From the NCBI RefSeq assembly GCF_001443605.1, contig NZ_CP013118.1:62001-126000 (forward strand): 64,000 nucleotides of DNA, given 5' to 3'. Position 1 is the stretch's first letter. The number at the start of each line of letters is the position of its first letter. The notes beneath the pieces were generated by a model. That model made no database searches, was not told where the DNA came from, and worked only from the letters and a program-made list of their open reading frames with translations. Source of the DNA: Salinivirga cyanobacteriivorans. Its GTDB lineage: Bacteria; Bacteroidota; Bacteroidia; Bacteroidales; Salinivirgaceae. Both the position numbers and the translations under genes were made by a program. Positions 33,252-61,218 of this stretch are shown here, piece after piece.

Positions 33252-33338
33252 ATTTGTCATAAAATCTGTTCTTTGACCTAATGCTGCAAGGGGGGTCAAT
33301 ATGACCGAAATGGGGGGGCAGTATCACCGAAATATCCA

Positions 33339-33871
33339 TGCCCGCCACTTTCTGTGATTCTTCTGCCGTACAGGCTTACGATGTTGCCGTTTTTGTCTTT
33401 CAATGGAAAGGTGATGCACTGTTTGAGTTTTTTCCAGTTTACTCCTGAGTTATAGCCAACTTCTTGTAATTGTTCTAAGCAGCGATTTCTCAAATACTCC
33501 TGTGCTTTGGGGCTGCGTGGGAGGCCTTCTTTTTGCATTTTAAACAGTTCGGCAAAGTTTTCGGCCTCCTTCACGCTAGCCTTACCTGAAGAAATCCCCA
33601 TAACTTCAGTATTTTCTCCTGCCAGTTCTGCAGCTTTTTTTAACGCTGTATGCTTATCGCAATTTTCTTTGTCCTGGATAAATTGTATCACATCGCCGGT
33701 TTTGCCGCAGCCAAAGCAGTTGTAAGTGTTGGTTTCTGTATAAATTTTGCAGCTGGGTTTGTCGTCTTCGTGGAACGGACATTTAATGTGGTCGTTCTTA
33801 TCGGGTTTAATGCCGTAGTGCGCCAAAACGCTCATTATAGTCAGCTGTTTTTTGATATCGGGGATTTGCAT
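33339..33871 (-). pseudogene. Primase/helicase copy 1, 5' fragment
   Basis: The first about 178 codons are almost identical to copy 2 (40510-43101), including the CHC2 zinc finger KCPFHEDDKPSC...CFGCG. Reading then runs into IS21 and stops at 33296. A few more codons (HNVEFGKHY) survive at 30664-30694 beyond the IS, after which the homology ends in unrelated sequence. TOPRIM and ATPase parts are gone, so it is non-functional. Confidence 0.9.
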
Positions 33872-33903
33872 GTGAGAAAAAGTTTAAAATTATTTTTTAA
33901 GAC

Positions 33904-34028
33904 TTATCATTCACAAAACTAAATGATAAATCTCAAACCACCAAACATTAAATGTATTGTTTATGACTCTTAATTCACTTACTTTTGCAAATACAGTGAT
34001 TTAGCGGTCATTTTTAATACTTATCATT
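33904..34028. promoter_or_regulatory. Divergent control region of XRE gene 1 and primase copy 1
   Basis: The octamer TTATCATT occurs at 33904-33911, inverted (AATGATAA) at 33922-33929, and again at 34021-34028 touching the XRE start codon. A Bacteroidota-type promoter lies between them: TTG at 33957-33959, then 20 bp, then TACTTTTG at 33980-33987. The spacing suggests autorepression by the XRE protein. This is inferred. Confidence 0.65.
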
Positions 34029-34358
34029 ATGGATTTTGGCGACAATATGATGCTCATACGCAAAAAGAAAAAGCTCTCACAAGCTGCTTTGGGAAAAATG
34101 ATTGGCACCTCCGGTGATGTGATCGGAAGGTACGAACGCGGGGACATTAAACCCTCCATTGATGTGGTTGCAAAAATTGCCGATGCACTGGAAGTTTCTG
34201 TAGATTACCTGATAGGAAAAACAAGCTTACTCCTCGATAAAGAAACACTGCAACGCATCGAGAATATTTCAAACCTCAAAGAAGAAAACAAAAACTTCAT
34301 TTTCAACCTGATCGATATGGCGCTCAGGGATATAAAAGCTAAAAAAGCTTATTCGTAA
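34029..34358 (+). CDS. XRE-family repressor 1
   Basis: 109 residues. The N-terminal helix-turn-helix is KKKLSQAALGKMIGTSGDVIGRYERGDIKPSIDVVAKIADALEVSVDYLIG, followed by a short helical dimerisation tail. Identical in protein sequence to copy 2 at 43259. It is divergent from the primase gene with symmetric octamers between, so it probably controls the unit. A hairpin terminator follows. Confidence 0.9.
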   Translation: MDFGDNMMLIRKKKKLSQAALGKMIGTSGDVIGRYERGDIKPSIDVVAKIADALEVSVDYLIGKTSLLLDKETLQRIENISNLKEENKNFIFNLIDMALRDIKAKKAYS

Positions 34359-36198: not shown

Positions 36199-36258
36199 AT
36201 CTTCAAAGATGTGCCAACCGCCTTCGGGGTTGTGGATCAGGTCCCATTGGTATTTCCA
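36190..36258 (-). repeat. 69-bp junction sequence, copy E
   Basis: 23 codons reading WKYQWDLIHNPEGG then WHIFEDVEE. Immediately upstream (36259) the sequence changes to the conserved end of the mobile unit, where copies B and C continue into the metallopeptidase. Confidence 0.85.
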
Positions 36259-36829
36259 AGTGAACGGAAAAATTGAATGTCAATGATGCTTTTATACAGG
36301 CTTTTATCAAAGAACGTCGTGCTATAAACACACTTTCAAATATATAAAAATCGGCCATGCTTTTTCTTTCAATTGAAAAGTTCAATTGAAGAAAAAAGAC
36401 CACAGGTTTATTTTTTAAAAGAAAAACAAAAAAAAGAAAGCCATACCGCAAGGTAAGGCGGAAAGGGCTGTCAAGGCTGACGGCAAAAGAGTTTTACCGG
36501 AAAAAATCCATTTATTAAAACTGTTTTGCCGGAACTTGTCTTGGCCTTTACTGCCCTTGTAGCCGACTTAAATTGGGTTTCCTTTTTTTGCTTTCCGGCA
36601 GTCAAAAACTGCGTTGTTTCAAGTCGCTAACCTGCTGAACAATGGTAACTTGTGCGTAAGGAAAAAGTGCCTACAGCAAGCGGTGGGAAAGCGGATGCAA
36701 TGAGCGATGCCCTGAGCGTAGTCGAAGGGTGAAGCGGATTGCAGACGCTGTGCAGCGATAGCGAGCCGCCTGCGAGTGCGGCCGAGGCCTGCCGGGTAAA
36801 AGCCGACCTTAGAAGGCTGAGCGGCAGTG
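36259..36829. other. Conserved non-coding segment of unit 2, left part
   Basis: No credible gene. It aligns with 45465-46029 of unit 3. It differs in several places, for example a CCCTGAGCGTAGTCGAAGGG palindrome-like insertion near 36710. It is cut at 36829 by IS21 element 2 and resumes at 39424. Confidence 0.7.
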
Positions 36830-39806: not shown

Positions 39807-40373
39807 TTACAACTCCTGCCATCCTTTAAAATCTTTAAATTCTTCAAAGGCCGATTCCCATATCTCAGAGGCTTCCTGTGCCCGGGTTTGTGGTATGAGT
39901 TCGTAGTTCTGCAGTTGACGGTAGCCTTTGCCGTTTTTCCGGATTAGATTTAATTCCCGTAAGCCTTGTAAAATGCGATTGCAACTGGTTTTTGATTTTC
40001 CGGTAAGTGCTTGTAAATCCCTCCAATTGAAAGAAGAAGATAAACCGATTTCATCAAACAAGATTTGATAATAATTTCTTATATTGCCCGATATATCAAG
40101 CTTTTGGGCTGTAAACAATGGACTGATCAACATTAAAGCTGTTGCATAATCTTCTCTTTGGCTGATGTAATTTCCCTCGCTGTCTTTTTGCCTGTAGAGC
40201 TTATTGATTACCGTTAATGAGTGTACCAGTGATTCATAAAGTATGCGTACATCGTTCTGTAAAATGGTGCTGCTTTCTATTTCTGTGGTTGGGTCGTGTA
40301 CTGTTGTTGCCCTTGGGAACAGGTTCTTTAAGGCGATTACTAAGCTTGTTATTTTTAGGTATCTGCATTCCAT
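39807..40373 (-). CDS. Winged-helix protein related to the primase C-terminus
   Basis: 188 residues from the ATG at 40373 (MECRYLKITSL); the frame is open to 40478, but that part overlaps the motif region. The segment LTVINKLYRQKDSEGNYISQREDY parallels VTLINQYQRKRDGQGRVITEPEDL of primase copy 2. It is followed by a helix-turn-helix (WRDLQALTGKSKTSCNRILQGLRELNLI). It looks like a stand-alone copy of the primase C-terminal region. It occupies the position of the recombinases and RelE pair of unit 3. Confidence 0.65.
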   Translation of the reverse strand: MECRYLKITSLVIALKNLFPRATTVHDPTTEIESSTILQNDVRILYESLVHSLTVINKLYRQKDSEGNYISQREDYATALMLISPLFTAQKLDISGNIRNYYQILFDEIGLSSSFNWRDLQALTGKSKTSCNRILQGLRELNLIRKNGKGYRQLQNYELIPQTRAQEASEIWESAFEEFKDFKGWQEL

Positions 40374-40384
40374 TGTTTTTTCAA

Positions 40385-40495
40385 TATCTCTATTAACACT
40401 TTTCGTGGGACGCGGGACGCAAAGGGTTTTTTCCAGTAATGACGCAGGTTCTATCGTCCCATTTGGCGTTCCACCCACTTTGGGACGCTAGATAT
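40385..40495. repeat. GGGACGC/GGCGTTCC motif cluster, unit 2
   Basis: TGGCGTTCCA (40464-40473) and TGGGACGCTA (40481-40490) face each other across 7 bp. Further GGGACGC words lie near 40408-40420 and GTCCCA near 40456. The matching cluster of unit 3 is at 48798-48896. Candidate recombinase core site or operator. Confidence 0.55.
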
Positions 40496-40509: not shown

Positions 40510-43101
40510 TTAGAGCTTATCTAATTGATTGTTAAGATATTCTTTAATCTGCTCACGCAACTTTACAACATTGTCCCAATACGATACTTTATAACGTAAT
40601 CCCTTATTTTGATAACCACCTGTAACCGAAAGATATTCTAACTCTAAAAGATTGTTTAAATATCGGTGTGTAGCCGATTTACTAAGGTTTAGACTATGCC
40701 GGATTTCCCGTTGCATGAATTCATAGTTTTGCGGGTTTTCTTTTGCCAAAACATACGCCTTCAGCTGCTCAAAGAACTGCCGCAATGAGCCGTCCAGCTC
40801 GTCCACTTTCAAAAAAATACTGTCGAACATGATCTCTACGGCTGTTTTCAGGTCTTCGGGTTCGGTGATTACCCGGCCTTGTCCATCTCGCTTGCGCTGA
40901 TACTGATTGATTAAGGTGACTTGCTTTACAAAACTCAAAAACAGTTCGTGCAGGCGCCGTATTTTGTGGGCTTGGGGTGGCAGTTTTATCTTGTCGGCAT
41001 AGGGGTTGATTACTTTCAACGGTTTTAACATGCGGATGCAGTTTTGCAAAAATTCCTTTGCTTCAACTTCCTGCCCTTTTTCTATCGTCCCGCTGGCGGT
41101 TTTGCTTTGGTAGTTCATAATCTTTTGTGTTTGCCCGCTGCTTTCATCCACGGCCACAATAAACATACGGCTCATGTTGTCCTCGTAAATTTGTCCGTGC
41201 GTAGTGGCGCAGATGCTGGCCATTGGACCTCTAACAATTCGTTGAGCACTTCTAATGTTTCCGTTTTCGTCCTTTTGACTGGTGGAGCTGCTGAGCTGTT
41301 CGTTGCTGATCAGCTCGCGCCAGGCAAACAAGGCTTCTTCTTTCAGCCCATCGATGTCTTCCAAACAAACCAGTTTCCCTTGAAAATAATATTCATCGTA
41401 GTTGTAAAAACTGTTTTCCGTAACACGGGTAAATTTCACTACTCGTTCATCGGGCATTAAAGCGGCTATTTTGCTCAAAAGGTGCGTCTTTCCGCTGCCC
41501 GAACTGCCTTGTATCAGCGCATGCAGCGTGCCGGGCATTTTGTGGCTCGTGCCAATAATGAACAAAAACAATCGGTTGTTCTCTTCGCCTACGATGCCCG
41601 ATTGGCCGATCAAATCGTTAAGATGTTCTATCAAGTTTTGTTTTTTCAGGAACGCTTTACACTTCGCTTGTTCCGGTAAGCTTAAAGCTTTGTCGTTTGA
41701 GTTTTCTTCGGTGGTTTGCTGCAGTTGGTTATCTCTGTGCTCTTCCAGTAAATCGGTTAGTTGCGATAAATCGTTTTCCACCAAATCGCTCCGTAAATCC
41801 AGTTTCTCACTTGCCTCACTGGCTTCTTTACGCGCCTGTTTTTCTTCGTATAAATCCAAACGGCAACGGTATTTTATGGCGGTTTCCAGATGCTGCACGT
41901 CTAAACTTACCAGCATGCGGTCGAAGGTTTTCGGCAGGCTGCCTTTGATAATGTAACGGGCGGTTGGGGTTTCGTGGATGATTTTGTTTGGGGTATCGGT
42001 TTTTAATGGAGACGCAAGGCATTGCGGCTGTACTTCGGTAGCGGCCTCCTTTGGAGACGCATGGCAATGCGTCTGTACATTGGTAGTGGCGGCTTTCTTT
42101 GGAGACGCATGGCACTGTGTCCGGCTTCCGACGGATTGCGTCTGTACGACAGGCTGTCGTTCTTCGATTAATTGCAGTATTGCTTCTTTGCCGTAGTTTA
42201 CAAAGAGGCTGTTGATGTCTTCGCCGTCGGGCGTTGGTACTGTTGAGACAAGGCATGCCTTGTCTTTAATCAGTTCTTCGCTGTATTTCCTTGCCGCTTC
42301 TTTTCCGGCTTGGTCGCCATCAAAAAAGAAGATTATTTCCTCCAGATTGGATAATTGACTTATGGCTGCTTTGCGTTCAGCCGTTAGGCCGTTGGTGCCG
42401 TAGGCGCTTAGTATTGAGACGCTCTGCAGATCGTCTTTACAATGCAGCAGTGAAGCTGCATCTATTATCGCTTCGGTTATGATTAACGTTTCTGTATTAG
42501 CGTCTGGATAGCCCGGGTAAAGTCCTTTGCGGTTTGCCGTGTAGTAGTGTTTGCCAAATTCTATGTTATGGCCATTGCTCTCCGCTATTCTTCTACCGTA
42601 CAGGCTTACGATATTCCCGTTTTTGTCTTTCAATGGGAAAGTGATGCACTGTTTGAGCTTTTTCCAGTTTACACCGCTATTGTACCCAACCTCTTGTAAT
42701 TGTTCTAAGCAGCGGTTTCTCAAATATTCTTGTGCTTTGGGGCTGCGTGGGAGGCCGTCTTTTTGCCTGTTAAATAGTTCGGCAAAGTTTTCGGCCTCCT
42801 TCACGCTAGCCTTACCTGAAGAAATCCCCATAACTTCAGTATTTTCTCCTGCCAGTTCTGCAGCTTTTTTTAACGCTGTATGCTTATCGCAATTTTCTTT
42901 GTCCTGGATAAATTGTATCACATCGCCGGTTTTGCCGCAGCCAAAGCAGTTGTAAGTGTTGGTCTCTGTATATATTTTGCAGCTGGGTTTATCGTCTTCG
43001 TGGAATGGGCATTTGATGTGGTCGTTTTTATCTGGTTTAATGCCGTAGTGCGCCAAAACGCTCATTATAGTCAGCTGTTTTTTGATATCGGGGATTTGCA
43101 T
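40510..43101 (-). CDS. Primase/helicase-like protein of the mobile unit, copy 2
   Basis: 863 residues. A CHC2 zinc finger of DnaG type at about 27-60 (KCPFHEDDKPSC, CFGCGKTGDV) is followed by a TOPRIM region at about 215-310 (LIITEAIIDAASLL, EIIFFFDGDQAGKEAA). After a variable linker comes an ATPase with Walker A QGSSGSGKTH near 535 and VCLEDIDGL, then a winged-helix C-terminus. It probably primes or remodels DNA for replication of the element. The linker near 310-370 is enlarged by in-frame palindromic repeats (CHASPKxAAT). Divergent from XRE gene 2. Confidence 0.88.
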   Translation of the reverse strand: MQIPDIKKQLTIMSVLAHYGIKPDKNDHIKCPFHEDDKPSCKIYTETNTYNCFGCGKTGDVIQFIQDKENCDKHTALKKAAELAGENTEVMGISSGKASVKEAENFAELFNRQKDGLPRSPKAQEYLRNRCLEQLQEVGYNSGVNWKKLKQCITFPLKDKNGNIVSLYGRRIAESNGHNIEFGKHYYTANRKGLYPGYPDANTETLIITEAIIDAASLLHCKDDLQSVSILSAYGTNGLTAERKAAISQLSNLEEIIFFFDGDQAGKEAARKYSEELIKDKACLVSTVPTPDGEDINSLFVNYGKEAILQLIEERQPVVQTQSVGSRTQCHASPKKAATTNVQTHCHASPKEAATEVQPQCLASPLKTDTPNKIIHETPTARYIIKGSLPKTFDRMLVSLDVQHLETAIKYRCRLDLYEEKQARKEASEASEKLDLRSDLVENDLSQLTDLLEEHRDNQLQQTTEENSNDKALSLPEQAKCKAFLKKQNLIEHLNDLIGQSGIVGEENNRLFLFIIGTSHKMPGTLHALIQGSSGSGKTHLLSKIAALMPDERVVKFTRVTENSFYNYDEYYFQGKLVCLEDIDGLKEEALFAWRELISNEQLSSSTSQKDENGNIRSAQRIVRGPMASICATTHGQIYEDNMSRMFIVAVDESSGQTQKIMNYQSKTASGTIEKGQEVEAKEFLQNCIRMLKPLKVINPYADKIKLPPQAHKIRRLHELFLSFVKQVTLINQYQRKRDGQGRVITEPEDLKTAVEIMFDSIFLKVDELDGSLRQFFEQLKAYVLAKENPQNYEFMQREIRHSLNLSKSATHRYLNNLLELEYLSVTGGYQNKGLRYKVSYWDNVVKLREQIKEYLNNQLDKL
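42008..42150. repeat. In-frame REP-like repeats inside primase copy 2
   Basis: Three spaced copies of GGAGACGCA(T/A)GGCA, each followed by a TGCG(T/G)CTGTAC-like half at about 42008, 42053 and 42098, encode the CHASPK(K/E)AAT repeats. Copy 3 of the primase has unrelated linker DNA here. Confidence 0.75.
42246..42265. repeat. 20-bp perfect palindrome inside primase copy 2
   Basis: AGACAAGGCATGCCTTGTCT reads in frame as part of the sequence between the TOPRIM acidic motif and the linker. Primase copy 3 lacks it at this position. Confidence 0.75.
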
Positions 43102-43133
43102 GTGAGAAAAAGTTTAAAATTATTTTTTAAGAC

Positions 43134-43258
43134 TTATCATTCACAAAACTAAATGATAAATCTCAAACCACCAAACATTAAATGTATTGTTTATGACTCT
43201 TAATTCACTTACTTTTGCAAATACAGTGATTTAGCGGTCATTTTTAATACTTATCATT
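43134..43258. promoter_or_regulatory. Divergent control region of XRE gene 2 and primase copy 2
   Basis: Same arrangement as at 33904: TTATCATT at 43134-43141 and 43251-43258, inverted at 43152-43159, with TTG (43187) and TACTTTTG (43210-43217) 20 bp apart. Confidence 0.65.
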
Positions 43259-43588
43259 ATGGATTTTGGCGACAATATGATGCTCATACGCAAAAAGAAA
43301 AAGCTCTCACAAGCTGCTTTGGGAAAAATGATTGGCACCTCCGGTGATGTGATCGGAAGGTACGAACGCGGGGACATTAAACCCTCCATTGATGTGGTTG
43401 CAAAAATTGCCGATGCACTGGAAGTTTCTGTAGATTACCTGATAGGAAAAACAAGCTTACTCCTCGATAAAGAAACACTGCAACGCATCGAGAATATTTC
43501 AAACCTCAAAGAAGAAAACAAAAACTTCATTTTCAACCTGATCGATATGGCGCTCAGGGATATAAAAGCTAAAAAAGCGTATTCGTAA
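43259..43588 (+). CDS. XRE-family repressor 2
   Basis: 109 residues, identical in protein sequence to XRE 1 at 34029. Same helix-turn-helix and same divergent control region. Probably represses the primase gene and itself. The DNA after the stop codon differs from unit 1. Confidence 0.9.
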   Translation: MDFGDNMMLIRKKKKLSQAALGKMIGTSGDVIGRYERGDIKPSIDVVAKIADALEVSVDYLIGKTSLLLDKETLQRIENISNLKEENKNFIFNLIDMALRDIKAKKAYS

Positions 43589-45404: not shown

Positions 45405-45464
45405 ATCTTCAAAGATGTGCCAACCGCCTTCGGGGTTGTGGATCAGGTCCCATTGGTATTTCCA
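45396..45464 (-). repeat. 69-bp junction sequence, copy D
   Basis: Encodes WKYQWD to IFEDVEE. At 45465 the sequence switches to the mobile-unit end. DNA is nearly identical to copy E. Confidence 0.85.
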
Positions 45465-46433
45465 AGTGAGCAGGAAAACCCATCGTCAATGATGTTTTTA
45501 TACAGGCTTTTATCAAAGAACGTCGTGCTATAAACACACTTTCAAATATATAAAAATCGGCCATACTTTTTCTTTCAATTGAAAACTTCAATTGAAAAAA
45601 AAAAGACCACAGGTTATTTTTTAAAAGAAAAACAAAAAAAGAAAGCCATACCGCAAGGTAAGGCGGAAAGGGCTGTCAAGGCTGACGGCAAAAGAGTTTT
45701 ACCATAAAAATCCATTTATTAAAACTGTTTTGCCGGAACTCGCCTTGGCCTTTACTGCCCTTGGAGCCGGCTTAAATTGGGCTTCCTTTTTTTGCTTTCC
45801 GGAAGTCAAAAATTCCTTTGTTTAAAGTCTTTAACCTGCTGAACAATGGTAACTTGTGCGTAAGGAAAAAGTGCCTACAGCAAGCGGTGGGAAAGCGGAT
45901 GCAATAAGTGAAGTGAGGAACGAACGAAACGGGTTGCAGACGCTGTGCAGCGATAGCGAGCCGCCTGCGAGTGCGGCCGAGGCCTGCCGGGTAAAAGCCG
46001 ACCTTAGAAGGCTGAGCGGCAGTGCTGCCTGCAGTGAGCTTTGGCGCAGGTTTTTGATCGTGTCGTCGGATGGAGCGATGGCTCAAAAACTGTGACAAAG
46101 GCGAACCGAGGACGCCAGCAGGCTCGCTTAACTCGGGCAGCGGTTGGCTGTGACTGCGATGTGGAGTTTACGGAACATGGCAGGCGCAGACAAAGGAGCT
46201 GCCAATGAGGAAGATTGAGGAACGCAAAAAACATGACAAGCTCGTATCCGCCAGCTGGCGGAGGAGACCCGCAGGGCGGAACAGCTTATTTTTATTCAAT
46301 TGAAAATAAGAGTATCATAAAAATGTGCTGTGACGGCTTGGCCATGGGTTTTTGCTGACGAGTGATGACGAATACCGCTTTTCCGGATTTCCGATACGTT
46401 GCACTATCGGGACAGGCTGTGCGGTGGGGTTTT
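45465..46433. other. Conserved non-coding segment of unit 3
   Basis: About 970 bp, AT-rich at its left end and GC-rich in the middle, with short overlapping ORFs on both strands that look accidental. It has paired TTCAATTGAA words near 45577 and 45589, several inverted stretches, and a 29-bp hairpin insertion near 46388 absent from unit 2. Its conservation across units 2, 3 and 4 suggests an origin, a transfer or recombination site, or a structured RNA. Confidence 0.6.
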
Positions 46434-47024: not shown

Positions 47025-47888
47025 TCATTTCAACGGATGATATTTTTCTAACTCCTTTTGCAGATCTTCTAAATTGTCCGTCCTGTAACGCTCTGTGCTG
47101 CTTACATACTTGTGCCCGGCCATGTATTGCACTTCCCGTAAATTGTAATGTTGCAACCAATTTGTAATGACCGATGCCCGGATTTGTGCCATGTTTTTTA
47201 ACCTCGGTCCGTACCGGTTTATCATCTTTTTTATTCTTGGCATGCCACGGCCCAGCCGCTTTTTGTGGAACAAATAAGGGCCTTCGATTTCATCGCTCAA
47301 CGCTTTTCTTTCGGTCAAAAGATATTCGTGCAACGGTAGTATTTGAAAGGGCTTTAGCGCTAATATCCTTTTGTTGGTCCTTTTGGTGGAAGGTACATAA
47401 ATTTGGCCTTTGCCCAGTTGCAAATGGTTGATCTCCAGCTTTACCAGTTCACAGGTTTGTAAGCCCTGGTAAATTTTCAACCCTAAAATGATGTGATAGG
47501 TTTTCAACGTGTTTTCGTGCGTCCAGTGGTTGCGGCTTTCAGGGAACTTTTGGTATATTTCATCGAGCTGCTTTTGGGTAAATAAATCGTGCGGTACCGT
47601 GCGCTGTACGCCTTTTAATCGGACGTTTTCTGCAACGTTGGGCAGGCCTTTAAATTCCAAGTAATAGCCGATTTTTTTTAACTCTAAATTGATGGTTTTT
47701 GCCTGTATGCTTTGGCCTTTTCGATAGCGGATGTACTGCATTAACTGCTCATTATCAAAACTTTCAGCTGAAAGAGATAGTTCATGCAAATAAAGTTTAA
47801 ACTTCTTTTCAATGAAAGAACCATAATCACCGGCCGTGCTTATGGCAAAGCCTTTTTCAACCAGGTATTGTTTAAAATATTGATCCAT
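47025..47888 (-). CDS. Tyrosine recombinase 2 (degenerate active site)
   Basis: 287 residues. N-terminal SAM-like core-binding domain and C-terminal catalytic fold. The Tyr region GHKYVSSTERY is intact, but the first catalytic Arg position reads GLQTCEL (Q), and the HxxR box reads AQIRASV without the His. It starts 17 bp inside the end of recombinase 1. It may serve as a partner of recombinase 1, as in paired-recombinase transposons. Duplicated at 61810. Confidence 0.85.
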   Translation of the reverse strand: MDQYFKQYLVEKGFAISTAGDYGSFIEKKFKLYLHELSLSAESFDNEQLMQYIRYRKGQSIQAKTINLELKKIGYYLEFKGLPNVAENVRLKGVQRTVPHDLFTQKQLDEIYQKFPESRNHWTHENTLKTYHIILGLKIYQGLQTCELVKLEINHLQLGKGQIYVPSTKRTNKRILALKPFQILPLHEYLLTERKALSDEIEGPYLFHKKRLGRGMPRIKKMINRYGPRLKNMAQIRASVITNWLQHYNLREVQYMAGHKYVSSTERYRTDNLEDLQKELEKYHPLK

Positions 47889-48798: not shown

Positions 48799-48896
48799 GG
48801 AACGCCAAGGGGTTTTTAAACTTTAATTTCATGTCAATTAGTTTTTTATATGATTTCCTGGCGTTCCATCTGGTGTTCCAATGCTTTGGGACGCCA
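48798..48896. repeat. Inverted 10-bp motif cluster upstream of recombinase 1
   Basis: TGGAACGCCA (48798-48807) and TGGCGTTCCA (48859-48868) are exact inversions. TGGTGTTCCA (48871-48880) faces TGGGACGCCA (48887-48896) across 6 bp. Arms of this size with a 6-7 bp spacer resemble a tyrosine-recombinase core site. A repressor site is an alternative. Confidence 0.55.
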
Positions 48897-51474
48897 GGTT
48901 ATCAATTTGGCCGAACAGGTACGTTTTGATTTCATTCCGAAGCTTTGTAACGTTGTCCCAATAGATTATTTTGTACTTAAACCCACGGTTGGCATAACCG
49001 CCCGATTGATGCAGGTATTCCAGTTCCATTAATTCGCTGAGGTAACGGTACAGCTGTGTTTTGCTTAAATGCAGGGCATGCCTGACCTCCCGCTGGGTAA
49101 ATTCGTACTGCTGAGGGTTGTCTTTTTCTAAAGCATAAGCCTTCAGTTTTTCAAAAAACTGCCGCAATGAGCCGTCCAGCTCGTCGACCTTCAAAAAAAT
49201 ACTCTCGAACATGATTTCCACGGCCGTTTGCAGGTCTTCGGGTTCGGTAATAATGCGCCCGTGTGCATCTCGCTTGCGCTGATACTGATTAATTAAGGTG
49301 ACTTGCTTTACAAAGCTTAAAAACAGTTCGTGTAAACGCCTTATTTTATGGGCTTGCGGTGGTAGTGTTATCTTGGCGGCGTAAGGGTTGACCACTTTCA
49401 ACGGCTTTAACATACGGATGCAGTTCTGCAAAAATTCCTTGGCTTTTATTTCTTGTTCTTTTTCGATGGTTCCGCCGGCAGTTTTGCTTTGGTACTTCAT
49501 TATCTTTTGGGTTTGCTCGCTGCTTTCATCAACGGCCACAATAAACATTCGGCTCATATTGTCCTCGTAAATTTGCCCGTGGGTGGTGGCGCAGATGCTG
49601 GCCATTGGCCCGCGGACAATACGCTGGGCACTGCGGATGTTCCCGTTTTCGTCTTTCTGGCTGGTGCTGCTGCTCAGCTGTTCGTTGCTGATCAGCTCGC
49701 GCCAGGCAAAAAGCGCTTCTTCTTTCAGCCCGTCGATGTCTTCCAAACAGACCAGCTTATTCTTGAAAAAATATTCGTCGTAGTTGTAAAAGCTGTTTTC
49801 CGTAACGCGGGTAAATTTAACCACCCGTTCCGGTGGCATTAGTGCCGCTATCTTGCTCAAAAGGTGCGTTTTGCCGCTCCCCGAGCTGCCTTGTATCAAG
49901 GCGTGCAACGTGCCGGGCATTTTGTGGCTCGTGGCTATGATGAACAAAAACAAACGGTTGTTTTCTTCGCCTACGATGCCGCTTTGGCCGATCAGTTTAT
50001 TGATCCTGGTGATTAATTCGGGTTTGCTTAAAAATGCTTTGCATTTCGCTTGTGCTGCTATGCTTAGAGCTTTGTCGTTTGAGTTTTCTTCGGTGGTTTG
50101 TTGCAGTTGGTTGTCCCGGTATTCTTCCAGTAAATCAGTTAATTGTGATAAATCGCTTTCCACCAAATCGCTGCGCATATCCAGTTTTTCCGATGCTTCA
50201 CGGGCTTCTTTCCGGGATTGTTTTTCTTCGTACAGATCTAAGCGGCAGCGGTATTTGGTGCCTGTTTCCAAGTGCTGCACGTCTAAGCTCACCAGCATGC
50301 GGTCGAAGGTTTTCGGCAGGCTGCCTTTGATAATGTAACGGGCGGTGGGGGTTTCGAAAATTATTTTATTTGGGGTATTAGTGTTTAATGGTGACAGGCC
50401 GTTGGTTTCTTGTACTTCTTCGGGTGTAATGGCCTTATTGTTAAATTGTTGTATTGTTATATTGTTAGGTGATTTGGGAGTTTTGAGGTTTACAGGTTGC
50501 CGTTCTTCGATTAATTGCAGTATTGCTTCCTTGCCATAAGTCACGAACATACTATTTACATCCTCGCCATCAGGTGTTGGCACGCTTGTTACTTCAACTC
50601 TGCTCAGTAACCTTTGAACGTTTTCTGTATTTTTTATTACGCCTTCACGTCCAGCATTGTCTCCATCAAAGAAAAAGATTACTTCTTGCTTCTCGACTCC
50701 GCTCGAAGACCATTCTGCAATGGCTGCTTTGTGTTCGGCGGTTAGGCCGTTGGTGCCGTAGGCGCTTAGGATTGAGACGCTCTGTAGAGCGTCTTTACAT
50801 TGCAGCAGCGTTGCTGCATCGATGATGGCTTCGGTGATGATTAAAGTTTCTGTATTTGTGTCTGGATAGCCCGGATAAAGCCCTTTGCGGTTTTCGGTGT
50901 AGTAGTGTTTGCCAAATTCTACGTTATGGCCATTGCTCTCCGCTATTCTTCTGCCGTACAGGCTTACAATGTTTCCGTTTTTGTCTTTCAATGGGAACGT
51001 AATGCACTGTTTGAGCTTTTTCCAGTTTACTCCTGAGTTATAGCCAACTTCTTGTAATTGTTCTAAGCAGCGGTTTTTGAGATACTCCTGCGCTTTGGGG
51101 CTGCGTGGGAGGCAGTCTTTTTGCCTGTTAAATAGTTCGGCAAAGTTTTCGGCCTCCGCAGCCCGCTTGGATGCAATCCCCATTACATCGGTATTTTGGA
51201 TATTTTTTGTTGCGTTGCCATTGGCCAGTTCTGTGGCCTTTTTTAAAGCTGTGTGCTTATCGCAATTTTCTTTGTCCTGGATAAATTGTATTACATCGCC
51301 TGTTTTGCCACAGCCAAAGCAGTTGTAGGTGTTGGTTTCTGTATAAATCTTGCAGCTGGGCTTGTCGTCCTTGTGGAACGGGCACTTTATATGACTGTTC
51401 TTATCGATTTTAATGCCATAATGCGCCAAAACACCCGCTATGGGCAGCCGTTTTTTGATGTCGGGGATTTGCAT
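48838..51474 (-). CDS. Primase/helicase-like protein of the mobile unit, copy 3
   Basis: 878 residues with the same layout as copy 2: CHC2 zinc finger at about 27-60, TOPRIM (LIITEAIIDAATLL, VIFFFDGDNAGREG), Walker A QGSSGSGKTH near 540, a VCLEDIDGL acidic motif and a winged-helix end. It differs in the linker at about 325-375 (LKTPKSPNNITIQQFNN). Its last codons (GTPDGTPGNHIKN) run through the inverted-motif cluster. Intact. Confidence 0.88.
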   Translation of the reverse strand: MQIPDIKKRLPIAGVLAHYGIKIDKNSHIKCPFHKDDKPSCKIYTETNTYNCFGCGKTGDVIQFIQDKENCDKHTALKKATELANGNATKNIQNTDVMGIASKRAAEAENFAELFNRQKDCLPRSPKAQEYLKNRCLEQLQEVGYNSGVNWKKLKQCITFPLKDKNGNIVSLYGRRIAESNGHNVEFGKHYYTENRKGLYPGYPDTNTETLIITEAIIDAATLLQCKDALQSVSILSAYGTNGLTAEHKAAIAEWSSSGVEKQEVIFFFDGDNAGREGVIKNTENVQRLLSRVEVTSVPTPDGEDVNSMFVTYGKEAILQLIEERQPVNLKTPKSPNNITIQQFNNKAITPEEVQETNGLSPLNTNTPNKIIFETPTARYIIKGSLPKTFDRMLVSLDVQHLETGTKYRCRLDLYEEKQSRKEAREASEKLDMRSDLVESDLSQLTDLLEEYRDNQLQQTTEENSNDKALSIAAQAKCKAFLSKPELITRINKLIGQSGIVGEENNRLFLFIIATSHKMPGTLHALIQGSSGSGKTHLLSKIAALMPPERVVKFTRVTENSFYNYDEYFFKNKLVCLEDIDGLKEEALFAWRELISNEQLSSSTSQKDENGNIRSAQRIVRGPMASICATTHGQIYEDNMSRMFIVAVDESSEQTQKIMKYQSKTAGGTIEKEQEIKAKEFLQNCIRMLKPLKVVNPYAAKITLPPQAHKIRRLHELFLSFVKQVTLINQYQRKRDAHGRIITEPEDLQTAVEIMFESIFLKVDELDGSLRQFFEKLKAYALEKDNPQQYEFTQREVRHALHLSKTQLYRYLSELMELEYLHQSGGYANRGFKYKIIYWDNVTKLRNEIKTYLFGQIDNLASQSIGTPDGTPGNHIKN

Positions 51475-51502: not shown

Positions 51503-51590
51503 GTACCAATTGGTGACAAATATAATATATTAGTTCTAAACAAACAAAACTTTTATGATTTGATTAATACAGATAAGTGCCGTATTTTTG
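51503..51590 (+). promoter_or_regulatory. Control region of XRE gene 3 and primase copy 3
   Basis: The palindrome ACCAATTGGT (51503-51512) lies between the divergent genes. A promoter follows: TTTG at 51559-51562, 20 bp, TATTTTTG at 51583-51590. The operator word differs from that of units 1 and 2, matching the diverged repressor. Confidence 0.6.
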
Positions 51591-51629: not shown

Positions 51630-51965
51630 ATGACATTTGGAGAGCGTATTATATCATTAAGAAAAAAGTTAAAATGGTCTCAAGACGAACTAGCGAAAAA
51701 GATTGGTACTTCTGCTCCTATTATTGGAAGGTACGAACGCAACGAGATAAAGCCATCTATTGAGACGGCCAAAAACATTGCTGATTCGCTTAATGTTACT
51801 TTAGATTATTTGCTAGGAGGGTCTAATAGTGCCGTTTTAGACAAAGAGCTTTTAAAACGGCTTGAAGATATTGAAAGCCTTTCGCAAGAGGACAAGGACA
51901 AGATTTACTACTTCATCGACATGGCTATCAGGGATGCAAAAGCAAGACAGGCTTATAAAGAATAA
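51630..51965 (+). CDS. XRE-family repressor 3
   Basis: The ATG at 51630 (MTFGERIISLRKKLKWSQDEL) is preferred over a start at 51588; 111 residues. Helix-turn-helix with RKKLKWSQDELAKKIGTSAPIIGRYERNEIKPSIETAKNIADSLNVTLDYLLGG. Homologous to but clearly diverged from XRE 1 and 2. Likely represses the primase gene of unit 3. Confidence 0.88.
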   Translation: MTFGERIISLRKKLKWSQDELAKKIGTSAPIIGRYERNEIKPSIETAKNIADSLNVTLDYLLGGSNSAVLDKELLKRLEDIESLSQEDKDKIYYFIDMAIRDAKARQAYKE

Positions 51966-54248: not shown

Positions 54249-54317
54249 CTCTTCCACATCCTCAAAAATATGCCACCCACCTTCGGGGTTGTGGATCAGG
54301 TCCCATTGGTATTTCCA
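54249..54317 (-). repeat. 69-bp junction sequence, copy C
   Basis: Encodes WKYQWDLIHNPEGG to IFEDVEE in the context GTELWKYQW, where the metallopeptidase remnant is still joined. Confidence 0.85.
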
Positions 54318-54430
54318 AAGTTCGGTGCCGGTTGAATAATCCATAAGATTATCTGTTTCTCCCTGAGGCAAAGTAAAGGAATTTTCTTCGGAAAACGTGT
54401 GGCGTAAATTAAAAACTCCGTGGCCAAGTT

Positions 54431-56325: not shown

Positions 56326-58338
56326 TTATTTAATATATTTAAACCAAATGTATGGATTTGTTAGTCTTGTGATTTTACTACTTCGACTTTTGGGAAATTG
56401 CATAATCGCTTTTGTATCAGTACCTGCTTCTATAGCAATTGGTAATTCCACATCAAAATCATCTCCAACTTTAGTCTTTTCTGGGGTTCCTGAGAAAAGA
56501 GTTTTAGGTACTATTGCAACGATATGTCCAGGCCCTGACTCTTTCACCACACCAATAATTATTTCTCCCAAATTTGCTTGATTCTGAATGTCATCGAAAA
56601 AAACATTCCAGGTTTGCGTAGATGGTTTGGTTAACCTTTCAAAATATTCTGTTAAAGAATTGCTATTTAAATCTTCGTATATTCTATTTGCTGTTCCTGT
56701 CCAACTAATAAGTCCTTTAAATGCAGTTGGCCCATCTTGAGTCTCCAGCCCTGATCCGAATCTACTATCTGGATTTTCTGGATCTGTTACAGGAAACAAT
56801 ACTGTCTCATTTTTCATATAATACAAATATGCTCTGATAGTATTATTGCATGTATATTCTACTCCAGGTGTCTCCCATGATTCTCCAATCAACATTGCAC
56901 TATCAGCAAATTGTTGAATATGCTCTAAATCTGCACCATACAAATAGTTTTTAAGCACATCAACATTATCCGAATCAACATCTATGTGTAATACATCATG
57001 TCCTCCCGTTCCTATACCTTCAAAACGTAATGACGTAAAATCACCTTGTTGCTGATAAATATTTTCCTCAGGGTATTCATTGTATAAACCTGGATTAATT
57101 TTGACTTCTTGATTGCGAGGATAAAACTCAATTTGAATCTGAATCGGATCTGCATCTCCAAGCGCTACAGATGAATGATACAAAATGGAAGTACTGTAAT
57201 TGTAGCTTACCTGACTATTTCCATTAGCATAAGCATTCTTTAATGTATCTAAAACCGCCATTATTTTGGATTTATTTACAATTACACCACTTTCCCCCTC
57301 CTCCACATCCTCAAAAATATGCCATCCACCTTCTGGGTTGTGTATGAAGTCCCATTGGTATTTCCAAAGTTCGGTGCCGGTTGAATAATCCATAAGATTA
57401 TCTGTTTCTCCCTGAGGCAAAGTAAAGGAATTTTCTTCGGAAAACGTGTGGCGTAAATTAAAAACTCCGTGGCCAAGTTCATGCGCTACATCGCGGGTGG
57501 TGGCATCGGCGGTTACGAAGCCGTAGCGCGATTTAATGGGCATATACCCACGTACGTCGCCGCCTTCGGTGATGCCGGGGATTACGAACAGGTAGGCCTG
57601 GCCCTGTTGCACGGGGTCGTACTGCATGCTGGCCAGAAACGATTCCCACACGGCGCGCATCTCGTTGCTGTAGTCGGTGTTGGGGCGCTCTATGAGGCCG
57701 TCGCCGTTTTCGTCCCAATAGTTGATGTCCAGCGCGGGCAGGTATTCCACATCCCAGCTTACCACGGCCTGGCCGTAAATGTCGTTGAGGGCCTCTTCGA
57801 GTTGTTCCTGTGTGTAATTGAGCTCGTGGCCTACAGGTACTACTTTCAATTCGAGGGCAAAGCGCTCATAAGCTGCCACCCCTATACCTCCGGCTATGGA
57901 AGCTTCCCCGGTGGTGGTATCGCGGTTGCACACGGCCAGCAGAATATCTTCATTGCCGGGTGGTGCCTGCAGGCTGAGTGTGTAGCCTGAGGTGGCATCG
58001 CCGTCTGCGCTTACGCCGGTGCCGCCCGACTGGTACTGGAAATTGAGCTCATCGGCGTCGCTGTCGTTCACCTGCACGCGCAACATGCCGGTTTCATCGG
58101 TGGACATGGCTTTCCAGCCAATGCCGGTGACCTGCGTACCCGTGGTCAGGGTTTGATAGCCGGTTACGGGCGGATCGCGATAAGCATCCATACCGTATTT
58201 GGACATGCTGTGGGGGACAAACTCAATTGGCCTGTCGCAGGCGATCATATCCTGCACCGGATCGTGGTCGGCTCCACCACCGGAACCACCTTCGCCATCG
58301 CCACCCACGTTGAAATGGTCATCTTCGGTTACCACCAC
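56326..58338 (-). CDS. Metallopeptidase-toxin gene B (5'-truncated polymorphic toxin)
   Basis: 670 residues from a GTG; the frame is open to 58398 but a true N-terminus is missing, so this is a 5'-truncated gene. Residues of about 190-350 form a metzincin-like peptidase: H286 ELG H290, H297, and a NLMDY Met-turn near 314-318. Residues 325-347 are the junction. Tip B follows: a linker domain shared with tip A (IYQQ, GDFTSLRFEG), then C497 (YTCNNTIRAYLYY) and H605 (GPGHIVAIVP), a spacing typical of NlpC/P60- or CHAP-like peptidoglycan hydrolases. The peptidase may release the tip. Delivery and toxicity are inferred. Confidence 0.68.
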   Translation of the reverse strand: MVVTEDDHFNVGGDGEGGSGGGADHDPVQDMIACDRPIEFVPHSMSKYGMDAYRDPPVTGYQTLTTGTQVTGIGWKAMSTDETGMLRVQVNDSDADELNFQYQSGGTGVSADGDATSGYTLSLQAPPGNEDILLAVCNRDTTTGEASIAGGIGVAAYERFALELKVVPVGHELNYTQEQLEEALNDIYGQAVVSWDVEYLPALDINYWDENGDGLIERPNTDYSNEMRAVWESFLASMQYDPVQQGQAYLFVIPGITEGGDVRGYMPIKSRYGFVTADATTRDVAHELGHGVFNLRHTFSEENSFTLPQGETDNLMDYSTGTELWKYQWDFIHNPEGGWHIFEDVEEGESGVIVNKSKIMAVLDTLKNAYANGNSQVSYNYSTSILYHSSVALGDADPIQIQIEFYPRNQEVKINPGLYNEYPEENIYQQQGDFTSLRFEGIGTGGHDVLHIDVDSDNVDVLKNYLYGADLEHIQQFADSAMLIGESWETPGVEYTCNNTIRAYLYYMKNETVLFPVTDPENPDSRFGSGLETQDGPTAFKGLISWTGTANRIYEDLNSNSLTEYFERLTKPSTQTWNVFFDDIQNQANLGEIIIGVVKESGPGHIVAIVPKTLFSGTPEKTKVGDDFDVELPIAIEAGTDTKAIMQFPKSRSSKITRLTNPYIWFKYIK
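57298..57366 (-). repeat. 69-bp junction sequence, copy B
   Basis: Encodes WKYQWDFIHNPEGG to IFEDVEE joined to an intact metallopeptidase domain. It is the most diverged of the five at DNA level (for example TTCTGGGTTGTGTATGAAG). Confidence 0.85.
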
Positions 58339-60189: not shown

Positions 60190-60249
60190 ATCCTCAAAGA
60201 TATGCCAGCCGCCTTCGGGGTTGTGGATCAGGTCCCATTGGTATTTCCA
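60181..60249 (-). repeat. 69-bp junction sequence, copy A
   Basis: Encodes WKYQWDLIHNPEGG to IFEDVEE. At 60250 the sequence passes into the mobile-unit end, identical to unit 3. Confidence 0.85.
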
Positions 60250-61218
60250 AGTGAGCAGGAAAACCCATCGTCAATGATGTTTTTATACAGGCTTTTATCA
60301 AAGAACGTCGTGCTATAAACACACTTTCAAATATATAAAAATCGGCCATACTTTTTCTTTCAATTGAAAACTTCAATTGAAAAAAAAAAGACCACAGGTT
60401 ATTTTTTAAAAGAAAAACAAAAAAAGAAAGCCATACCGCAAGGTAAGGCGGAAAGGGCTGTCAAGGCTGACGGCAAAAGAGTTTTACCATAAAAATCCAT
60501 TTATTAAAACTGTTTTGCCGGAACTCGCCTTGGCCTTTACTGCCCTTGGAGCCGGCTTAAATTGGGCTTCCTTTTTTTGCTTTCCGGAAGTCAAAAATTC
60601 CTTTGTTTAAAGTCTTTAACCTGCTGAACAATGGTAACTTGTGCGTAAGGAAAAAGTGCCTACAGCAAGCGGTGGGAAAGCGGATGCAATAAGTGAAGTG
60701 AGGAACGAACGAAACGGGTTGCAGACGCTGTGCAGCGATAGCGAGCCGCCTGCGAGTGCGGCCGAGGCCTGCCGGGTAAAAGCCGACCTTAGAAGGCTGA
60801 GCGGCAGTGCTGCCTGCAGTGAGCTTTGGCGCAGGTTTTTGATCGTGTCGTCGGATGGAGCGATGGCTCAAAAACTGTGACAAAGGCGAACCGAGGACGC
60901 CAGCAGGCTCGCTTAACTCGGGCAGCGGTTGGCTGTGACTGCGATGTGGAGTTTACGGAACATGGCAGGCGCAGACAAAGGAGCTGCCAATGAGGAAGAT
61001 TGAGGAACGCAAAAAACATGACAAGCTCGTATCCGCCAGCTGGCGGAGGAGACCCGCAGGGCGGAACAGCTTATTTTTATTCAATTGAAAATAAGAGTAT
61101 CATAAAAATGTGCTGTGACGGCTTGGCCATGGGTTTTTGCTGACGAGTGATGACGAATACCGCTTTTCCGGATTTCCGATACGTTGCACTATCGGGACAG
61201 GCTGTGCGGTGGGGTTTT
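60250..61218. other. Conserved non-coding segment of unit 4
   Basis: Matches 45465-46433 base for base in the lines compared. No gene supported. Confidence 0.65.

What the first reader, a model, noticed from the sequence alone, without database searches (positions are those of the whole stretch)
33904..34028. Three octamers and a spaced promoter between the divergent XRE and primase genes
TTATCATT twice direct and once inverted, the last touching the XRE start, with TTG-20-TACTTTTG between. Units 1 and 2 are identical, and unit 3 has a different palindrome (ACCAATTGGT) with a different repressor. Operator and repressor appear to have changed together.
Basis: partly seen in the sequence, partly recalled or inferred. 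Interest (0 to 1): 0.5.

Follow-up and report, generated by a model that had tools for sequence, protein, structure and literature searches.

The report
Swappable repressor-operator cassette of stacked elements
Between two genes of a mobile DNA element lies a small switch, a repressor gene together with its likely binding sites, and the same genome carries nineteen such elements with nine different versions of the switch, each inherited as one block, much as temperate viruses keep separate immunity types.

Summary
In detail: TTATCATT at 33904 and 34021, inverted at 33922, and TTG-N20-TACTTTTG. Three octamers alone are weak evidence (350 of 5000 shuffles hold such a triple), but octamers 1 and 3 end an 18-nt direct repeat, 17/18 identical, that 0 of 400 shuffles match. 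The chromosome carries 19 such units in about 210 kb, of nine repressor/operator types. Copies of one type are about 100% identical over operator and XRE; different types fall to background (0.60-0.67), while the adjoining primase is equally similar in both sets. Operator and repressor thus travel as one block of about 0.5 kb. Over 31 non-redundant Bacteroidia loci, the two promoter regions of a locus share motifs beyond mismatched pairings (10.08 v 8.16; none of 20,000 permutations). The XRE passes the curated RstR cut-off, the family of CTXphi heteroimmunity repressors. Best reading: an autoregulated repressor of a primase-recombinase operon with type-specific immunity. Binding and immunity are untested; ACCAATTGGT as unit-3 operator is weakly supported.

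The parts
33894..33911 (+). Direct-repeat copy 1 (TTTTTAAGACTTATCATT), ends in octamer 1; downstream of the primase -7 box
   Evidence: 17 of 18 identical to copy 2, 0 of 400 shuffles
33914..33921 (-). Primase promoter -7 box TAGTTTTG (CAAAACTA on +), between octamers 1 and 2
33922..33929 (-). Octamer 2 (inverted), in the -33/-7 spacer of the primase promoter
33942..33945 (-). Primase promoter -33 element TTTG, 20 nt from the -7 box
33957..33959 (+). XRE promoter -33 TTG
33980..33987 (+). XRE promoter -7 TACTTTTG
34011..34028 (+). Direct-repeat copy 2 (TTTTTAATACTTATCATT) with octamer 3, abuts the XRE ATG
34029..34358 (+). XRE repressor type A, unit 1 (RstR family NF041951, 93.9 bits, cut-off 80)
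33296..33871 (-). Unit 1 primase, broken: 191-aa frame, its first 178 aa match the unit 2 primase
43124..43141 (+). Unit 2, direct-repeat copy 1 with octamer 1 (43134)
   Evidence: unit 2 = unit 1 + 9230
43144..43151 (-). Unit 2 primase -7 box
   Evidence: identical interval, + 9230
43152..43159 (-). Unit 2 octamer 2
43187..43217 (+). Unit 2 XRE promoter TTG-N20-TACTTTTG
43241..43258 (+). Unit 2, direct-repeat copy 2 with octamer 3
43259..43588 (+). XRE repressor type A, unit 2 (identical protein)
40510..43101 (-). Unit 2 primase, 863 aa (CHC2 zinc finger and Toprim above cut-off; AAA match below its cut-off)
51505..51514 (+). Unit 3 palindrome ACCAATTGGT, candidate operator beside the primase -7 box
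   Evidence: no XRE-side copy found
51517..51524 (-). Unit 3 primase -7 box TATATTTG, with TTG 20 nt upstream
51560..51590 (+). Unit 3 XRE promoter TTG-N20-TATTTTTG
51630..51965 (+). XRE repressor type B, unit 3 (frame opens at 51588; start homologous to type A at 51630)
48838..51474 (-). Unit 3 primase, 878 aa
47872..48798 (-). Tyrosine recombinase int2, 39 bp downstream of the unit 3 primase
47025..47888 (-). Tyrosine recombinase int1, overlaps int2

Best explanation
The interval is the control region of an integrative element. The XRE protein represses the divergent primase operon (primase, then two tyrosine recombinases in 11 of 19 units) by binding beside and across the primase -7 box, and limits its own synthesis through another site at or near its own promoter or start codon. 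Repressor gene and sites form a block of about 0.5 kb that is exchanged as one between elements. Each type should therefore silence incoming elements of its own type and leave other types free: a heteroimmunity system of the RstR kind. Shown: the sites, both promoters as sequence, the linkage of operator and repressor, the spread of types. Inferred: binding, repression, autoregulation, immunity.
For: Face-to-face Bacteroidota-type promoters at similar places: primase -7 box in 26 of 31 loci (2.0 expected), XRE -7 box in 23 of 31 (2.1 expected), base-shuffled controls; the consensus TAnnTTTG is in a passage of PMC7366714. Octamers 1 and 2 flank the primase -7 box, and the 18-nt repeat recurs at the XRE start. 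Primase-side and XRE-side regions of one locus share motifs more than mismatched pairings: mean 10.08 v 8.16, sd 0.25, largest of 20,000 permutations 9.22. Linkage: 12 same-type pairs have median identity 1.00 over operator, rest of interval and start of XRE (0.99 in its last part) against 0.60-0.67 in 141 different-type pairs, while the primase is 0.89 v 0.87 (first 600 nt) and DNA beyond XRE 0.63 v 0.60. Types A and B score above the RstR curated cut-off. Int2 lies 39 bp after the unit 3 primase on the same strand. XRE is uninterrupted in 18 of 19 units (E3 has lost its 3' end), the primase in 15 of 19 (broken: A1, C2, H2, I1).
Against: No binding data. Only 6 of 31 loci have a dyad at p <= 0.05 near the primase -7 box, although the combined p is 0.0014. 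Only 6 of 31 loci individually beat mismatched pairings at q <= 0.05; in the own genome A, C and I do, E and H are marginal (0.082, 0.066), B, D, F and G do not. Repressor distance correlates with operator distance (r = 0.134 for the recognition helix) but more strongly with a leader control (0.277), so that test is not specific. L114 has an A/C-like recognition helix (TSGDIIGRYER) with a B-like palindrome. ACTTAT beside the XRE start is also present in type B, so part of octamer 3 may be ordinary leader. Five of 31 loci lack the primase -7 pattern and eight lack the XRE one.
Confidence: 0.8

Rival explanations
1. XRE is an activator or dual regulator of the primase operon, not a repressor.
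For: Octamer 2 lies in the -33/-7 spacer; some XRE-family regulators activate (recalled, no call).
Against: Octamers 1 and 2 flank the -7 box itself, and copy 1 lies where transcription would be expected to start (start not mapped). In type E the dyad TTGTCAA-N6-TTGACAA runs into the -7 box. The family is named a repressor.
Confidence: 0.08
2. The block is a domesticated or antitoxin-like regulator and confers no element immunity; types reflect recombination only.
For: The four units with a broken primase keep an uninterrupted XRE. NCBIfam matches to antitoxin families exist, all below their cut-offs.
Against: Types stay discrete at background identity beside a shared primase. No single toxin gene stands next to XRE in all units, which sought only 16 query proteins. 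That the partner is a replication gene elsewhere is partly by design of the search, which started from the primase.
Confidence: 0.1
3. The octamers are chance A+T-rich matches, and only the promoters are real.
For: 350 of 5000 shuffles hold an octamer triple; the window count of TTATCATT is unremarkable.
Against: The 17/18 repeat, 0 of 400 shuffles; class-wide cognate sharing; a near match, ACTTATAATTCACAAAACTAA, in L091, whose primase is 50% identical.
Confidence: 0.06

Closest known systems
RstR of CTXphi with rstA, alleles of which define heteroimmunity (PMC7326730, passages read; no CTXphi sequence fetched)
   Same: Same NCBIfam repressor family, above cut-off; repressor beside a replication gene; several alleles, tandem copies; repression of rstA is allele-specific according to that review.
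   Different: The replication gene is a CHC2/Toprim primase; two tyrosine recombinases are present in 11 of 19 units; 19 units and nine types in one chromosome; no binding data here.
Repressor/stoperator systems of Cluster A mycobacteriophages (PMC6550527, abstract and passages read)
   Same: Distinct operator consensus per repressor, with strong preference for cognate sites.
   Different: Many dispersed sites there; here a compact interval with two promoters and two or three candidate sites.
Phage-inducible chromosomal islands with Stl/Rpr repressor (PMC6092414, passages read)
   Same: Divergent master repressor and primase/replication genes.
   Different: There the integrase is transcribed with the repressor; here two recombinases follow the primase. 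Phage induction and packaging unknown.

Membership tests
RstR family repressor (NF041951) | Score above the curated cut-off of 80 bits | tested here: met
   93.9 and 93.1 bits for types A and B; over cut-off in 19 of 295 class genomes, the own counted, and in 0 of 14 controls
RstR family repressor (NF041951) | Represses the divergent replication gene | not testable with these tools
   Layout only
Heteroimmunity module | Operator and repressor inherited together as discrete types | tested here: met
   12 same-type v 141 different-type pairs of 18 units
Heteroimmunity module | Same-type exclusion, other types admitted | not testable with these tools
   Needs transfer or reporter assays
Bacteroidota primary sigma promoter | TAnnTTTG at -7 with TTTG near -33 | tested here: met
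   Types A and B have TAnnTTTG and TTG at 20 nt in both directions. Over 31 loci the -7 box with TTG at 18-22 nt is found in 20 for primase and 12 for XRE. The full TTTG was checked only for the type A primase promoter (present) and type A XRE promoter (ATTG). Start sites not mapped
Phage-inducible chromosomal island | Divergent repressor and primase | tested here: met
Phage-inducible chromosomal island | Integrase transcribed with the repressor, on the far side from the primase | tested here: not met
   int2 and int1 lie downstream of the primase on its strand
Phage-inducible chromosomal island | Helper-phage induction and packaging | not testable with these tools
   none
Phage-inducible chromosomal island | Iteron replication origin | not tested
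   none

The most novel reading that the evidence does not exclude
The chromosome stores a stack of integrative elements whose immunity types decide which elements can be added. Elements of another type can enter and replicate; elements of the same type are held silent and join by recombination in the identical block, which would leave the observed same-type neighbours (8 of 18 adjacent pairs, 1.27 expected). Because each element also carries a toxin tip at an invariant 19-bp junction inside a toxin gene, the repressor/operator type would govern how a cell collects and swaps weapons.
Probability: 0.3. Interest if true: 0.75.

Novelty: new variant of a known kind. Interest (0 to 1): 0.55.

Why it matters
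Repressor/operator typing is classical in phages. Here nine natural repressor/operator pairs sit on closely related backbones in one chromosome, and related pairs occur elsewhere in the class Bacteroidia. That is a ready-made set for learning how a small XRE repressor and its operator acquire new specificity, for building orthogonal switches for Bacteroidota, and for testing whether immunity type shapes how toxin-carrying elements accumulate.

Tried and rejected
Counting octamers alone as evidence: rejected, 350 of 5000 shuffles. A dyad at the primase -7 box as a universal rule: not supported, 6 of 31 at p <= 0.05. Mantel test of repressor against operator distance: positive but not specific, since the leader control correlates more strongly. 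Relatives in viral contigs: 2 stretches matched a pattern, none confirmed, one scan. Phage records: 260 with a match, all under 60% identity, none covering 80% of the query. Plasmids: 109 records, 16 covering 80% or more, best listed 45% identity. Rfam on the window: 0 matches at the gathering threshold. Same-genus genomes: 2 of 2 besides the own have no match at E <= 1e-30 (one is only 85% complete). Filing as a PICI: rejected on gene order. A papers search on a guessed species name gave nothing of use; the species is not identified, and the nearest named primase hits are Salinivirgaceae MAGs, Alkaliflexus and Geofilum. Literature searches; among the titles and abstract openings they listed I saw no description of this array, which says nothing beyond those ten listings.

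Rows dropped: of 62 loci scanned (L057-L118, some of them the same place fetched twice), 40 had a divergent XRE within 700 bp. Seven were dropped for gap or primase-start criteria, leaving 33; with 9 own types that made 42, and 11 were removed as redundant (80% or more identity in the first 75 aa), leaving 31. I1 was left out because its primase start is split off by an insertion.

Full report
Observation. The octamers, the promoter and the contrast between units 1/2 and 3 are in the sequence as described. Their count alone is weak evidence: 350 of 5000 dinucleotide shuffles of the 157-bp interval have some octamer three times, and TTATCATT is not clearly over-represented in the window (9 seen, 6.35 expected). 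What stands out is longer: octamers 1 and 3 end an 18-nt direct repeat (33894-33911 and 34011-34028, 17/18), unmatched in 400 shuffles.

A second promoter. On the minus strand, TTTG (33945-33942), 20 nt, TAGTTTTG (33921-33914) is a Bacteroidota-type promoter for the primase, and octamers 1 and 2 flank its -7 box. The consensus (TAnnTTTG at -7, TTTG near -33) is as given in a passage of PMC7366714; the same passage says that the -33 motif was not found in another member of the phylum. In unit 3 the same two promoters stand at nearly the same places with different flanking DNA.

The genome. The window lies in a 4.81-Mb contig that carries 19 XRE homologues of this kind at C1:96029-306409, plus one weak hit elsewhere. 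Each stands opposite a primase gene or a remnant of one. There are nine types by sequence: A and E (3 copies each), B, C, D, F, G and H (2 each), I (1). Same-type copies are neighbours more often than expected: 8 of 18 adjacent pairs, mean 1.27 in shuffles, reached in 1 of 200,000. With the two complete duplications (B, F) collapsed it is 6 of 16, reached in 64 of 200,000.

Linkage of operator and repressor. Of 18 units compared (I1 left out), 12 same-type pairs have median identity 0.94 in the 26-bp leader, 1.00 in the operator block, 1.00 in the rest of the interval, and 1.00 and 0.99 in the two parts of XRE. The 141 different-type pairs give 0.77, 0.67, 0.60, 0.64 and 0.62. The adjoining primase does not follow the type (0.89 v 0.87 for the first 600 nt; 0.76 v 0.74 for the next 900), nor does DNA beyond XRE (0.63 v 0.60). 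Background for such A+T-rich DNA under this alignment is about 0.6, judging by the DNA beyond XRE. The block that travels is therefore the interval beyond the leader plus XRE, about 0.5 kb. Two of the 12 pairs (B, F) are whole-unit duplications and say nothing on their own; three pairs include an interrupted primase (A1 or H2), and the C pair includes one with a stop codon (C2).

Across the class. Primase relatives were found in 10 of 295 genomes of the order (E <= 1e-40) and 30 of 395 of the class (E <= 1e-60), the own genome counted in each. From these and non-redundant primase/XRE intervals were assembled. Primase -7 boxes occur in 26 of 31 (2.0 expected) and XRE -7 boxes in 23 of 31 (2.1 expected). 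With -7 boxes masked, the primase side and the XRE side of one locus share a better ungapped match than mismatched pairings: 10.08 against 8.16, sd 0.25, largest of 20,000 permutations 9.22. Individually 6 of 31 reach q <= 0.05: own A, C and I, L112, L104 and L073. Own type B does not (q = 0.885). The XRE-side match lies at the XRE start in A, 8 bp from it in I, 49 bp from it in C.

Co-change beyond the genome. The six most similar operator pairs are own A/L091, own D/L109, own C/L105, L106/L109, L107/L105 and own B/L114, all with recognition-helix identity of 0.69 or more against a median of 0.38; the next, L092/L090, has 0.54. For L105, L106, L107, L109 and L114 the partner gene matches only the part of the primase model from about position 354 onward, so similar blocks stand opposite different partner genes. 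The correlation over all pairs is, however, not specific: recognition helix against operator window r = 0.134, against XRE-side region 0.206, against the control leader 0.277. L114 pairs an A/C-like recognition helix with a B-like palindrome and counts against a simple helix-to-site rule. The name recognition helix is assigned from family knowledge, not from a structure made here.

What XRE is. Types A and B score 93.9 and 93.1 bits against the RstR model, cut-off 80; the closest solved relatives of type A by sequence are P22 C2 repressor chains (E about 1e-8). RstR is the CTXphi repressor whose alleles define heteroimmunity (PMC7326730, passages).

Mechanism. Shown as sequence: two opposed promoters, repeats beside the primase -7 box and at the XRE start in type A, block inheritance. 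Inferred: XRE occupies 33904-33929 and shuts the primase-recombinase operon, and occupies 34011-34028 to limit its own synthesis. Copy 1 and copy 2 start 117 bp apart, about 11 helical turns, which would allow looping (arithmetic and inference only). Immunity of a cell to same-type elements follows if XRE acts in trans; this is untested.

Context. The units look like integrative elements that carry toxin tips. An invariant 19-mer, TTGGAAATACCAATGGGAC, occurs 32 times in the fetched 280 kb, always on the minus strand; a 16-mer of it occurs 32 times in the whole genome, all within C1:98242-308976. Fourteen copies follow toxin-gene sequence ending CACCGAACT, and 18 follow an element-end sequence, one to the left of each unit except A1 (coordinates). 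This suggests integration at a site inside a toxin gene, with the incoming tip joined to the resident N-terminal part. That is inference from junctions; no excised circle or empty site was examined.

Verdict. The finding is right in its core and larger than stated: a repressor/operator block of a known kind in an unusual setting.

Noticed in passing
window 36241-36259, 45447-45465, 54300-54318, 57349-57367, 60232-60250 (minus strand): Invariant 19-mer TTGGAAATACCAATGGGAC with two alternative upstream flanks (toxin gene or element end); 32 copies in the array, 14 and 18 of each kind. Looks like an attachment core that swaps toxin tips.
   Followed up: partly
G000:C1:96029-306409: Same-type XRE blocks are adjacent in 8 of 18 neighbour pairs, 1.27 expected; in six of these the primase and the DNA beyond XRE differ.
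   Followed up: partly
window 39807-40478 and six further copies in the array: A 223-aa gene, 100% identical in all seven copies, stands downstream of the primase in seven units that lack the two recombinases; it matches C-terminal parts of some primases at 24-26%.
   Followed up: no
window 36731-36829, 45926-46024, 60711-60809 with neighbouring repeats: Repeats, mostly 93-98% identical (one 82%), beside the 19-mer at the left end of three units; no Rfam match in the window. Possible origin or recombination region.
   Followed up: no
window 56326-58338: Large protein with an HELGHGVFNLRH stretch (metalloprotease-like, recalled) followed by the tip junction; no Pfam match.
   Followed up: no
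G299 (Alkaliflexus) contig C5:1199112-1225758: A second genus with several primase matches and at least three XRE types within about 27 kb.
   Followed up: no
G000:C1:252357-253363 and C1:278450-280358: Insertions break two primases: one holds a 309-aa frame, the other a 464-aa transposase-like frame.
   Followed up: partly
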